Below, in pieces: positions 3,764-7,560 of a stretch of 8,514 nucleotides of DNA. Within the stretch, counting starts at the first letter, position 1, and the number at the start of each line of letters is the position of its first letter. Below the pieces are notes generated by a model. It ran no database searches. It had not been told where the DNA came from and was given only the letters and a program-made list of their open reading frames with translations. This stretch comes from a bacterium (GTDB taxonomy: Bacteria; Atribacterota; JS1; SB-45; 34-128). The position numbers were made by a program, and so were the translations under genes. The stretch covers positions 1 through 8,514 of the forward strand of contig JAHIPN010000448.1 in assembly GCA_018894595.1 (NCBI GenBank), in the 5' to 3' direction.

Positions 3764-4633
3764 TTGAAATTAAAAACCAAAAAAAGATATATTTTGTTAA
3801 TTTTGCTTTTACTTATTTTCTTTATTATTACTTATAAATCAATGGCAGATGAAACAAACGGGGAAAACATGGTCATTCCTTTAAGAGAAGTAGATTCATT
3901 AAAAGTAACTATAAAATTTGGGGCAGGAAAGCTGGACTTAATTTCCGGAGAAGAAGATGCATTTAAAGGAAATTTTCAATATGATAAAAGTATCTTAAAG
4001 CCCAATATCCGATATAAAATATTAGAGGAAACCGGTATCCTAACCCTATCCCAGAGTATTAAAAAAGACCTCAATTTATCATTTCCTTATAAAAATAGAT
4101 GGAATTTGAAATTACCTTCTGGTGTTCCTTTACAATTATATATTAATACTGCGACTTATAGCGGTGATATTGACCTAACTAATTTACAGATAGAAAATTT
4201 TTATCTCAATTCCGGAGCAAGTCAAACCAATATTGTATTTAATCAACCCAATCTTATAGACTTAAAAAATATTAATATCAAAACAGGTGCCTCCACTATA
4301 AAAATGTTAGGTTTGGCTAACGCAAATTTTAATGAAATGAATTTTACCGGCGGAGTAGGGAGCTACACCTTTGACTTTTCAGGCAACCTGACTAAAAAAT
4401 CGAAAGTTAACATTAATGCAGGGGCAGCTAAAATAATTTTAAAGATACCTTCGAACATGGGAACTAAGATAATTTTTAGAAATTTCCCAGCTTCAAAATT
4501 AGATGTCAGAGGTTTTGTAAAAATAAATGACCAGACTTATATTAGTCCGGAATATGGCAAAAGTGCTGCAGAATTAGATATCGAAATCAAGGGAGGCCTC
4601 ATAGATGTTGAGGTGGTCTCGTTAACCGATTGA
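3764..4633 (+). CDS. Membrane-anchored toast-rack / LiaF-like beta-repeat protein
   Basis: I place the start at the TTG at 3764, which follows AAGGGTGAT (3751-3759); this gives 289 residues. An upstream in-frame TTG at 3722 lies inside the terminator hairpin and lacks a binding site. The N-terminus is basic (KLKTKKR), followed by a hydrophobic segment at about 9-23, so it is a signal peptide or anchor and the rest is outside the membrane. The FGAGKLDLISG segment (52-62) resembles the toast-rack N-terminal domain found in LiaF/DUF2154-type envelope proteins. Glycine-alanine turns recur at about residues 151, 175, 197 and 220 (SGAS, TGAS, GGVG, AGAA). The spacing of about 23 residues suggests a beta-solenoid or stacked beta-sandwich. 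No catalytic motif is visible. Family members are linked to cell-envelope stress sensing or adhesion. No liaRS or pspC partner lies in the window, so the function is unknown. Confidence 0.7.
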   Translation: MKLKTKKRYILLILLLLIFFIITYKSMADETNGENMVIPLREVDSLKVTIKFGAGKLDLISGEEDAFKGNFQYDKSILKPNIRYKILEETGILTLSQSIKKDLNLSFPYKNRWNLKLPSGVPLQLYINTATYSGDIDLTNLQIENFYLNSGASQTNIVFNQPNLIDLKNINIKTGASTIKMLGLANANFNEMNFTGGVGSYTFDFSGNLTKKSKVNINAGAAKIILKIPSNMGTKIIFRNFPASKLDVRGFVKINDQTYISPEYGKSAAELDIEIKGGLIDVEVVSLTD

Positions 4634-4659
4634 CTTTTATTTTTTTTTTCAATTATACT
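4630..4659 (+). promoter_or_regulatory. Candidate promoter of the T-box/tRNA-Ala/leuS unit
   Basis: TTGACT (4630-4635), 18 nt, TATACT (4654-4659); each box matches consensus at 5 of 6 positions. The -35 box overlaps the TGA stop of the preceding gene. The spacer contains a run of ten T (4640-4649). The predicted start is near 4666, about 20 nt before T-box stem I, as expected for such leaders. Confidence 0.6.
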
Positions 4660-4862
4660 TAAAACGAATCGAATCAGAAAAAGACAGAGCGAAGGACTGA
4701 AAGGTATTTTTTCAAAAAGAGAATCAGCATCTGGTGAAAGCTGATAAACACCTTTAAACTCGCCTTCAAGTTTTGTAAGCGAAAAATTAAATTAAAATGT
4801 TAATTTAAATGTAGTTTACAGCGTTGACAAGCGTTAATTGTTTAATAAGAGTAGATAATTGT

Positions 4863-4938
4863 GGGGCTGTAGCGCAGTCGGGAGCGCGCCTCCTTGGCGT
4901 GGAGGAGGTCGCGGGTTCGATTCCCGCCAGCTCCACCA
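4863..4938 (+). tRNA. tRNA-Ala (anticodon GGC)
   Basis: The 76-nt sequence folds into a standard cloverleaf. The acceptor GGGGCTG pairs with CAGCTCC and includes the G3-U70 pair that marks alanine tRNAs. The D-arm is GCGC/GCGC with A14 and the GG pair in the loop. The anticodon stem CCTCC/GGAGG has loop TTGGCGT (anticodon GGC, reading GCC and GCU). The variable loop has 5 nt, the T-arm is GCGGG/CCCGC with TTCGATT, the discriminator is A, and CCA is encoded. Nothing in the fold looks degenerate. It has no terminator of its own and lies inside the leuS T-box leader. A TTGACA at 4824-4829 could be a private -35 box, but no good -10 box follows at proper spacing. Confidence 0.97.
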
Positions 4939-4985
4939 AATTACAATATGTAAAATCTACTGAAAAAGGGTGGTACCACGAGAAG

Positions 4986-5040
4986 AATCTCGTCCCTGGT
5001 AATAATTTAATTAATTACTTGAGACGGGATTTTTATTTTT
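4986..5040 (+). terminator. T-box-controlled intrinsic terminator before leuS
   Basis: ATCTCGTCCC (4987-4996) pairs with GAGACGGGAT (5021-5030), with one G-U pair and one C-A mismatch. The stem is extended inside by GGTAAT/ATTACT and followed by TTTTTATTTTT. Its 5' arm shares the CTCGTCCC segment with the antiterminator, so the two folds exclude each other. It is the only visible terminator for tRNA-Ala transcripts when leucine tRNA is charged. Confidence 0.9.
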
Positions 5041-5058: not shown

Positions 5059-7560
5059 ATGGAAGAAAGATATAATTTTGCCGAAGTTGAAAAAAAATGG
5101 CAGGAATATTGGACGAAAAATAATTTTTTTAAATCTTATGTAGATTCTAAAAAACCGAAATATTATGTTTTAGAAATGTTTCCCTATCCTTCGGGAGAAC
5201 CTCATATGGGGCACGTGAAAAACTACGTTATTGGTGATGTAGTGGCCAGATATAAACATTCTCAAGGATATAATATTCTGCACCCTATGGGTTGGGATGC
5301 CTTTGGCTTACCCGCGGAGAACGCTGCTATACAAAATAACATTCATCCTTCAATCTGGACTAAAAACAATATTCAAAAAATGAAAAATACTCTTACTAAT
5401 ATGAGCATCAGTTATGATTGGGATAGAGAAATAGCAACCTGTAATCCGGATTACTACAAATGGACACAATGGATTTTCTTACAATTATATAAAAAAGGAT
5501 TAGCCTACAAAAAGAAAGGTGTAGTTAACTGGTGTCCCTCCTGTTCTACTGTGTTAGCTAATGAACAAGTTGTGGAGGGAAAATGTGAAAGATGTGAAGC
5601 CGAAGTTGTTAAAAAAGAGTTATCTCAATGGTTTTTTAAGATTACCGAATATGCTCAGAGATTGCTTGATGATATAGAGTGTTTAGAAGAATGGCCAGAG
5701 AAAGTATTGACTATGCAGAGAAATTGGATAGGCAGGAGCGAAGGAGCAAGGATCGAATTTCCCATAAAGGGGAGCAATAAGACTATCCCGGTTTTTACTA
5801 CTCGACCCGACACTCTCTATGGAGCAACTTATTTTTTATTGGCCCCCGAACACCCTGCAGTAGGAGAGATAACAAAAGACTCTTCTTGCAAAGATGAAGT
5901 TCAGAGTTTTGTAAGAGAGGTAAGTAAAGAGAGCGCTATAGATAGGGTATCTGGCGTGTTGGAAAAAAGAGGATGTTTTACCGGTAAATATGTAATAAAT
6001 CCCATAAATGATGAGGAAATTCCCATTTGGGTAGCAAATTACATACTAATGGACTATGGAACGGGTGCGGTAATGGCAGTTCCGGCTCATGACCAAAGAG
6101 ATTTTGAATTTGCCAAAAAATATAATTTACCTATCAGAATAGTTATTCAACCAGAGGATAAAAAAGTTACCTCTGACACTATGGAGGCTGCTTTTGACCA
6201 AGCAGGCATTATGGTTAATTCCGGCCAATTTAATGGTTTATCAAGTAGTAAGTCATTAGGTGTGATGATTGATTATCTGATTAAAAAAGGCTCTGGGAAG
6301 AGAGAGGTTAATTATAGATTAAGAGACTGGCTTATTTCGCGCCAGCGTTATTGGGGGGCGCCCATACCTATAATTTATTGTTCTGATTGCGGAATGGTCC
6401 CTGTACCTGAAAATGATTTACCGGTTTTACTACCGGAAGATGTTGATTTTAGACCTAAAGGTATGTCACCACTGGCAAGCAGTAAAGAGTTTGTCAATAC
6501 AGCTTGTCCGAAGTGTGGTAAGGAAGCCAAAAGAGAAACAGACACTATGGATACTTTTGTCTGTTCTTCCTGGTACTACCTTAGATTTTGCTCTTCTAAA
6601 ATTAATACAGCACCATTTGATGCTGAAGAATTAAAATACTGGATGCCGGTAGACCAGTATATCGGCGGGGTAGAGCACGCTATATTACATCTATTATATT
6701 CTCGGTTTTTTATTAAAGCTCTATACGATATGGGGTTTGTAAATTTTAAGGAACCCTTCAAAAGGCTCTTTACTCAAGGAATGGTCTGCAAAGACGGAGC
6801 AGCAATGTCTAAATCAAAAGGTAATATAGTCAATCCGGGAGAAATATTTTCAAAATTCGGCATTGATGCTACCAGAATAATGATGCTGTTTGCTGGTCCT
6901 CCGGAAGCAGATATGGAATGGACTGATAAAGGAATGGATGGGGCATCTCGGTTTTTGAATCGAGTTTGGCGGTTAATTTACAATAATATCGATTGTTTTA
7001 AAAAGCCAAAAAACAAGGAAGAAATTTCCCCTGAAGATATAAGCATTGAAGCTAAAAAAATAAGACAGAAGACCCATCAAACCATTAAAAAAGTAACTGA
7101 AGATATCGAACAAAGATTTCATTTCAATACGGCTATTAGTGCAATCATGGAATTAGTAAATGAAATATACAAGTTTCAGCTGGAAGCAGAAGAAAAACAG
7201 GGCAAAGAAGGAGATATTTTTGTTTTAAGAGAGGCTTTAGAAATGATAGTCAGGCTTCTGGGTCCCATCGCTCCTCATTTTTCAGAAGAGCTATGGCAAG
7301 AGATGCGCAACAAAGAAATTATTTATATGCAGTCCTGGCCCAAATATGATGAGAAGATGTTGGAGGAAGAGGAGAAGCTAATTGTAGTCCAGGTAAATGG
7401 AAAACTAAGAGGAAAATTGACGGTTCCTGCATCTTACAATGATGAGAAAATAAAAAAGGAAGCACTTTCTCTACCAAAAATACAAGAAAAAATTGAAGGC
7501 AAAAAGATTATAAAAGTTATTGTTGTTTCTGGGAAACTGGTAAATATTGTGGTAAAATAA
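5059..7560 (+). CDS. leuS: Leucyl-tRNA synthetase
   Basis: This class I synthetase charges tRNA-Leu with leucine. The 833-residue protein is of normal bacterial length. It has the HIGH motif as HMGH (49-52) in [12 protein letters not shown] and a zinc-binding CPSC...CERC knuckle (C159, C162, C176, C179). The CP1 editing domain has TTRPDT (247-252) and the editing Asp in PAHDQRD (D345), which hydrolyses mischarged tRNA. A second Cys pair set follows (CSDCG and CPKCG), then the ASSW-like CSSWYYLRF segment and the KMSKS loop as AMSKSKGN (582-589). The C-terminal [11 protein letters not shown] segment is the usual tRNA-binding tail. The first Lys of KMSKS is Ala here while the second, catalytic Lys (K585) is kept. 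The ATG is preceded by AAGGAGG (5041-5047) directly after the T-box terminator, so expression should rise when uncharged tRNA-Leu accumulates. Confidence 0.98.

What the first reader, a model, noticed from the sequence alone, without database searches (positions are those of the whole stretch)
4666..5040. Complete tRNA-Ala gene nested inside the leuS T-box riboswitch
Stem I with its Leu specifier (4691-4767) lies upstream of the tRNA, and the antiterminator/terminator (4967-5040) lies downstream. Both parts look intact. Removing the 76-nt tRNA leaves a leader of normal length, so an ordinary T-box seems to have gained a tRNA gene. Every leuS promoter transcript would include tRNA-Ala even when leuS itself is terminated. 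RNase P and 3'-end processing would cut the sensor (stem I) from the switch (antiterminator), so sensing must finish before processing or the system must work differently. I know of no described case, but I cannot search.
Basis: partly seen in the sequence, partly recalled or inferred. Interest (0 to 1): 0.9.

Follow-up and report, generated by a model that had tools for sequence, protein, structure and literature searches.

The report
tRNA-Ala gene inside leuS T-box riboswitch
In this bacterium, and in many others spread over several phyla, the RNA switch in front of the leucyl-tRNA synthetase gene carries a complete alanine tRNA gene in one of its hairpins, so that one RNA appears to serve both as a leucine sensor and as the source of an alanine tRNA.

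Summary
A functional-looking tRNA-Ala(GGC) (4863-4938) sits in the loop of stem III of an otherwise complete leucine (CUC) T-box leader (4678-5000) before leuS. In four groups chosen around positive genomes it was found in 49 of 63, 37 of 113, 17 of 50 and 20 of 301 genomes. The stem III flanks covary around the tRNA and the known RRRxG...AA discriminator motif is kept. The strong promoter lies before stem I. In most genomes tested the nested copy is the only tRNA-Ala(GGC) found. G3:U70, encoded CCA and a U(-1) excess fit a tRNA that is cut out and used. Best reading: a bifunctional leader that always yields tRNA-Ala while the leucine T-box sets leuS read-through. Transcription, processing and regulation are inferred; no RNA data were seen. 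Nine literature searches showed no description, but two older T-box surveys were not held.

The parts
4630..4659 (+). promoter of the leader: TTGACT, 18 nt, TATACT
   Evidence: 10 of 12 consensus bases; in relatives the best site before stem I averages 10.52 of 12, shuffled 7.99 (93 loci)
4678..5000 (+). T-box leader, whole Rfam model, with the tRNA as an insertion in stem III
   Evidence: RF00230, 91.8 bits, model 1-219 of 219
4687..4771 (+). stem I; AGAGA at 4718-4722
   Evidence: Rfam alignment; read from the sequence
4759..4761 (+). specifier CUC (Leu)
   Evidence: Rfam alignment; CUC in 103 of 114 rows by pattern
4772..4820 (+). stem II
   Evidence: Rfam alignment
4821..4835 (+). stem IIA/B with the F-box-like CGUUA
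   Evidence: Rfam alignment; name F-box from PMC7778990
4847..4851 (+). purine string AAGAG (RRRxG) before stem III
   Evidence: motif as in PMC7778990 and PMC7583486; RRRxG in 106 of 113 rows
4850..4856 (+). stem III, 5' strand AGUAGAU (register shifted by two against the RRRxG anchor in the window)
   Evidence: 7-bp duplex with 4955-4961, -8.3 kcal/mol; in the strict anchored register the window itself pairs poorly
4863..4938 (+). tRNA-Ala, anticodon GGC (4896-4898), G3:U70, encoded CCA
   Evidence: G3:U70 and ACCA in 114 of 114 rows
4955..4961 (+). stem III, 3' strand AUCUACU
   Evidence: covariation in relatives
4968..4996 (+). antiterminator with the T-box bulge UGGU at 4971-4974
   Evidence: Rfam alignment; UGGU in 112 and UGGA in 2 of 114 rows
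4984..5039 (+). intrinsic terminator: long hairpin and U-run
   Evidence: minimum-energy fold of 4666-5040; missed by the simple scan, whose loop limit it exceeds
5059..7560 (+). leuS, leucyl-tRNA synthetase

Best explanation
The leuS leader is a two-purpose RNA. One promoter before stem I makes a transcript whose stems I, II, IIA/B and antiterminator form a normal leucine T-box, and whose stem III ends in a complete tRNA-Ala(GGC) in place of a small loop. Uncharged tRNA-Leu(GAG) lets RNA polymerase read on into leuS; charged tRNA-Leu lets it stop. Either way RNase P and 3' processing release tRNA-Ala, so that terminated leaders are not wasted but supply the cell's tRNA-Ala(GGC). The stem III stalk keeps the discriminator motif and can hold sensor and switch together before, and perhaps after, the tRNA is cut out. 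Shown by sequence: anatomy, conservation, covariation, promoter position, single-copy status in most genomes tested, tRNA identity elements. Inferred: one transcript, processing, leucine control, the clamp.
For: Full-length T-box match around the tRNA in the window and in 18 of 19 fetched slices, 11 of them above gathering. 113 of 120 scan loci are tRNA-Ala(GGC) by ARAGORN and 3 more by eye; leuS downstream in 112 of 120. CUC in 103 of 114 rows, while the next triplet varies: GCC 74, GUC 17, ACC 7, AUC 3, GCU 2. Stem III flanks: 48 of 69 distinct loci have at least 5 of 6 pairs, against mean 21.6 and maximum 30 in 1000 partner swaps; duplex energy -6.81 against -3.65, lowest of 200 swapped means -4.10. 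Promoter before stem I, none in excess between specifier and tRNA. G3:U70 in 114 of 114; U(-1) in 93 of 114 against 12 of 27 other tRNA genes in the same loci. Nested gene is the only Ala-GGC match in 19 of 24 genomes and in all 30 composite-bearing genomes tested (30 of the 49). tRNA-Leu(GAG)-like genes in 8 of 9 Atribacterota genomes searched. In S. aureus RNase Y cuts the leuS T-box between stem I and the T-box sequence (PMC4608709, passages), so cleavage there is compatible with a working T-box.
Against: No RNA data. 42 of 114 rows, the window among the poorly pairing ones, give no clean helix of 4 or more pairs in the anchored register. Minimum-energy folds recover the acceptor stem in 67 of 114 leaders only. 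Ktedonobacteria (3 genomes) have a second Ala-GGC match. The single-copy test uses a pattern with at most one mismatch and partly incomplete genomes. T-box and tRNA have come apart in several lineages (L096, L113, L151, L160, L167, L171), so the link is not obligatory. The U(-1) comparison is not corrected for relatedness.
Confidence: 0.75

Rival explanations
1. The nested tRNA-Ala is itself a regulatory part: its folding, its ACCA end near the UGGU bulge, its charging or its excision feeds into the leuS decision, so that the leader reads alanine or tRNA-processing state as well as leucine.
For: Always the same isoacceptor in the scan (116 of 120); fixed place in stem III, part of the charging sensor; ACCA is complementary to UGGU (sequence).
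Against: The Ala codon GCC after CUC is not conserved (29 of 103 differ). T-boxes with a broken tRNA (L160, L167) or without it (L171) exist. G3:U70 in 114 of 114 points to normal use in translation.
Confidence: 0.15
2. Two overlapping but independent units: the tRNA has its own promoter and the T-box terminator merely ends it.
For: A TTGACA-like stretch lies at 4824-4829 in the window (sequence).
Against: That stretch is the IIA/B element in the Rfam alignment and has no matching second hexamer in the + strand scan. Best scores between specifier and tRNA equal shuffled ones (7.23 against 7.06; at least 10 in 5 of 93).
Confidence: 0.06
3. The T-box is a relic: the leader now only makes tRNA-Ala, and leuS gets whatever reads through the terminator.
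For: In nine other Atribacterota loci the sensor is absent and promoter, tRNA-Ala, terminator and leuS remain; L096 and L113 lack stem I.
Against: In the window and in most relatives all parts are present, with CUC kept in 103 of 114 rows and stem III covarying.
Confidence: 0.05
4. Assembly chimera or recent chance insertion.
For: The closest relatives are metagenome bins.
Against: Also in isolates: Syntrophomonas wolfei subsp. methylbutyratica, S. palmitatica, Thermosyntropha lipolytica, Desulfofundulus species and others.
Confidence: 0.01

Closest known systems
T-box leader, Rfam RF00230, leucine class upstream of leuS
   Same: Stem I with specifier and AGAGA, stem II, IIA/B, stem III, antiterminator with UGGU, terminator
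   Different: A whole tRNA gene for another amino acid fills the loop of stem III
T-box leaders cut by a nuclease between stem I and the T-box sequence (S. aureus valS, leuS, serS; RNase Y, PMC4608709, passages; B. subtilis thrS and RNase J, recalled)
   Same: RNA cut between sensor and switch
   Different: There no tRNA is released; here the cut would be tRNA maturation
tRNA genes in mRNA or rRNA operons (recalled)
   Same: tRNA and another RNA share one promoter
   Different: There the tRNA lies beside other elements; here it is inside the secondary structure of a riboswitch

Membership tests
T-box riboswitch (RF00230) | Match to the T-box covariance model | tested here: met
   Full-length, 91.8 bits, E 1.3e-19; below the curated gathering score of 93 by 1.2 bits, 18 of 19 relatives' slices match full length, 11 above gathering
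T-box riboswitch (RF00230) | Specifier codon fitting the downstream gene | tested here: met
   CUC (Leu) before leuS; 103 of 114 rows
T-box riboswitch (RF00230) | UGGN bulge matching the discriminator base of the ligand | tested here: met
   UGGU in 112 of 114 rows; A73 in tRNA-Leu is recalled
T-box riboswitch (RF00230) | RRRxG-stem III-AA motif | tested here: met
   RRRxG in 106 of 113 and AA in 108 of 114 rows; in the window the stem is shifted against it
T-box riboswitch (RF00230) | Response of read-through to uncharged tRNA | not testable with these tools
   Needs transcription assays
functional tRNA-Ala | Cloverleaf, G3:U70, CCA end | tested here: met
   ARAGORN; 114 of 114 rows (CCA was part of the search pattern for the relatives)
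functional tRNA-Ala | Processed from the leader and charged with alanine | not testable with these tools
   U(-1) excess, 93 of 114 against 12 of 27, is indirect only

The most novel reading that the evidence does not exclude
The leader is a cut-out riboswitch: RNase P and 3' processing remove the tRNA from the tip of stem III while the covarying stalk keeps sensor and switch together. The T-box then works as a two-piece RNA, and tRNA-Ala maturation, leucine sensing and leuS output are set by one promoter and linked in time: a regulator that makes one tRNA while reading another.
Probability: 0.3. Interest if true: 0.95.

Novelty: new variant of a known kind. Interest (0 to 1): 0.86.

Why it matters
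It would be a widespread case of a tRNA gene built into the structure of a riboswitch, with the tRNA made from the regulator of a synthetase for a different amino acid. It implies that terminated T-box leaders can be the main source of a tRNA. It makes two questions testable: what stem III tolerates, and how RNA processing and co-transcriptional sensing share one RNA. It also shows how standard searches can miss the class: the window and 7 of the 18 full-length matches score below Rfam's gathering threshold, and 11 of 16 loci gave no T-box match above it.

Tried and rejected
Alanine sensing through the GCC that follows CUC: rejected, since that triplet differs in 29 of 103 loci, also among close relatives of the window. 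Own promoter for the tRNA: not supported. Chimera: rejected. A free search for the longest helix between the tRNA flanks was too lenient to tell (at least 5 net pairs in 108 of 113, but also in 77% of swapped and 71% of shuffled pairs); it was replaced by an anchored test. The first anchored version, with the last motif taken, exceeded all of 500 swaps at pairs 1-4 but not at pairs 5 and 6; the second let real and swapped pairs choose the register alike. The first specifier pattern was too strict (76 of 114) and was replaced (103 of 114). A loose terminator pattern matched 66 of 114 only; it was not refined. Whole-leader folding recovers the tRNA acceptor stem in 67 of 114.

Rows dropped: 4 of 120 scan places (L019, L031, L049, L062) are not tRNA-Ala in a T-box; L014, L044 and L093 were left out of the 114-row set (113 loci plus the window) because the tRNA is cut by the slice or by an insertion. 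The final stem III test used 100 of 114 rows, 69 distinct. The promoter test used 93 of 114. The LeuS tree used 96 proteins (quick method). The groups were chosen around positive genomes, so their rates are not those of bacteria at large. No group without the arrangement, such as Bacilli, was searched as a control.

Full report
What is there. The window carries lipA, an EF-G-type gene, a protein with a toast_rack N-terminal domain, leuS and ssb. Before leuS lies a promoter-like site (4630-4659), then a T-box leader that Rfam's model matches from end to end (4678-5000, 91.8 bits, E 1.3e-19). A tRNA-Ala(GGC) at 4863-4938 falls in the stem III part of the model as a 98-nt insertion. The specifier is CUC and the T-box bulge UGGU, and a terminator hairpin with its U-run follows. 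The leader folds better than its 100 shuffles (z -3.86). LeuS identity to the six closest scan loci is 86-94% over the aligned pieces, and the LeuS tree puts the window among Atribacterota, so the window very probably comes from that phylum.

It is not a single case. I scanned one genome each of public bacterial and archaeal species for any tRNA 3' half with CCA followed within 5-35 nt by a T-box sequence. ARAGORN names the tRNA in 113 of these as tRNA-Ala(GGC); three more (L014, L044, L093) are Ala-GGC by eye, cut by the slice or by an insertion, and four are unrelated. leuS lies downstream in 112 of 120. In three others (L006, L048, L057) an acyl-CoA-synthetase-like gene comes first and the DNA held is too short to show leuS; in L084 the held DNA ends after 63 bases; the last four are the unrelated ones. 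Record titles include Syntrophomonas, Thermosyntropha, Desulfofundulus, Symbiobacterium, Ktedonobacter, Dictyobacter, Sphaerobacter, Armatimonadota, Caldisericota, Coprothermobacterota and Atribacteria (80 of the 120 titles were shown). Counts with the same pattern, in groups chosen around positive genomes: 17 of 50 in the Atribacterota, 20 of 301 in a sample of the Chloroflexota, 49 of 63 in the class of S. wolfei, 37 of 113 in the class of Desulfofundulus. The pattern undercounts: of 30 pattern-negative genomes of the first and third group looked at, five have the arrangement with a variant T-box sequence (L155, L156, L157, L159, the last with a masked tRNA) or a wider spacing (L152).

Position and structure. 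Rfam alignments of relatives show stem I, II, IIA/B, then RRRxG, the stem III 5' strand, the tRNA, the stem III 3' strand, AA and the antiterminator. On 19 fetched slices, 18 give full-length T-box matches around the tRNA, 11 of them above gathering; the nineteenth (L142) has only the antiterminator end. The motif 5'-RRRxG-stem III-AA-3' is described as part of the charging sensor in PMC7583486 and PMC7778990 (passages read). Here RRRxG is found in the 33 nt before the tRNA in 106 of 113 rows and AA at its place in 108 of 114. The two strands covary: 48 of 69 distinct loci have at least 5 of 6 pairs, against a mean of 21.6 and a maximum of 30 in 1000 partner swaps; all six pairs form in 27 of 69 against a maximum of 13. 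Duplex energy of the flanks averages -6.81 kcal/mol against -3.65 for swapped partners. In 72 of 114 rows an uninterrupted helix of 4 or more pairs starts at the motif; it is 6 bp at the median, with a median of 6 nt between it and the tRNA on each side. The other 42 rows, the window included, give none in that register; the window has a 7-bp duplex two bases off it (-8.3 kcal/mol).

The tRNA looks used. G3:U70, the alanine identity pair (recalled), and ACCA are present in 114 of 114 rows (CCA was in the search pattern). U at -1, which PMC9433436 (passages read) calls optimal for catalysis by RNase P, occurs in 93 of 114 against 12 of 27 other tRNA genes in the same loci (Fisher p 3e-4, relatedness not corrected). 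Its gene is usually the only tRNA-Ala(GGC) found: 19 of 24 genomes have one true Ala-GGC match and it is the nested gene (checked); in one (G021) the single gene is split off by an integrase element, three Ktedonobacteria have two matches, and one has none. In one search, the 30 genomes given from the 49 each have exactly one Ala-GGC match, at the nested place. The pattern allows one mismatch and the genomes may be incomplete.

One promoter. In 93 loci the best score in the stretch before and into stem I averages 10.52 of 12 (shuffled 7.99), with at least 10 in 70. Between specifier and tRNA it averages 7.23 (shuffled 7.06), with at least 10 in 5.

The T-box looks used. CUC is present in 103 of 114 rows while the triplet after it varies. 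In L024, L038 and L076 a branched-chain-aminotransferase-like gene, and in L006, L011, L029, L042, L048, L057, L074, L083, L100 and L107 an acyl-CoA-synthetase-like gene, is the first gene under the leader (named by eye). tRNA-Leu(GAG)-like matches without mismatch are found in 8 of 9 Atribacterota genomes searched (the pattern is short and its control also matches at one mismatch).

History. The LeuS tree of 96 sequences groups mostly by phylum (9 changes of label where 6 is the least; shuffled mean 17.6), and the Atribacterota rows form one group with support 98. Within it the window's clade has the nested form. In nine loci of other Atribacterota (L158, L162-L165, L168, L170, L173, L175) there is promoter, tRNA-Ala(GGC), a short terminator that often begins CUCGUCC or CUCGCCC, and leuS, without the sensor. 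Losses are seen on both sides: L096 and L113 lack stem I and L118 keeps part of it, L151 has lost the antiterminator, L171 keeps the T-box but lacks the tRNA, L160 and L167 have a broken tRNA 5' half; the genome of L167 has an intact copy elsewhere, that of L160 shows none. Some Syntrophomonas-class loci (L154, L161, L166, L169) show neither by these tests. The simplest reading is an old nested form with losses, but the root is not fixed and ancient transfer is not excluded.

How it most likely works. See Best explanation. The step from anatomy to function is inference; no RNA data were available. The stalk as a clamp after excision is a proposal that follows from covariation, not a result.

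Known or new. Nine searches of the open library, with T-box combined with tRNA gene, leuS, tRNA-Ala, embedded, nested, stem III, RNase P, precursor tRNA and organism names, listed no paper whose title or shown abstract describes this. I read passages of five papers (one search found no passage). [quoted passage not shown] Two older T-box surveys were not held, so an earlier mention cannot be excluded.

Noticed in passing
L044 and L146 (Symbiobacterium thermophilum bin, G021): A phage-type integrase gene (PF00589, 5.4e-16) lies beside the nested tRNA-Ala in L146, and L044 holds only a tRNA 3' part before antiterminator and leuS: an integrative element seems to use the nested tRNA as its site, which splits the T-box.
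   Followed up: partly
L171 (unnamed Atribacterota genome G057): Complete stem I and antiterminator, but stem II, half of stem III and the tRNA are missing; no Ala-GGC match in that 1.1-Mb genome. A natural tRNA-less form or an assembly fault.
   Followed up: partly
L158, L162-L165, L168, L170, L173, L175: tRNA-Ala(GGC), terminator and leuS without a T-box; the terminator often begins with CUCGUCC or CUCGCCC, like the antiterminator 3' strand of T-boxes, perhaps a relic.
   Followed up: partly
L009, L045, L058, L060, L082, L092, L116: The leader goes from the specifier almost straight to stem III and the tRNA, without room for stem II and IIA/B (by eye).
   Followed up: no
L003, L016, L034, L053, L054, L069, L090 (Ktedonobacteria): A second tRNA-Ala lies upstream of the leader, before the nested one.
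   Followed up: no
window 4863-4938 and slices L134-L143, L149: In the overlap-filtered Rfam table the tmRNA model (40-47 bits) stands in place of the tRNA family at the nested tRNA: an annotation trap.
   Followed up: no
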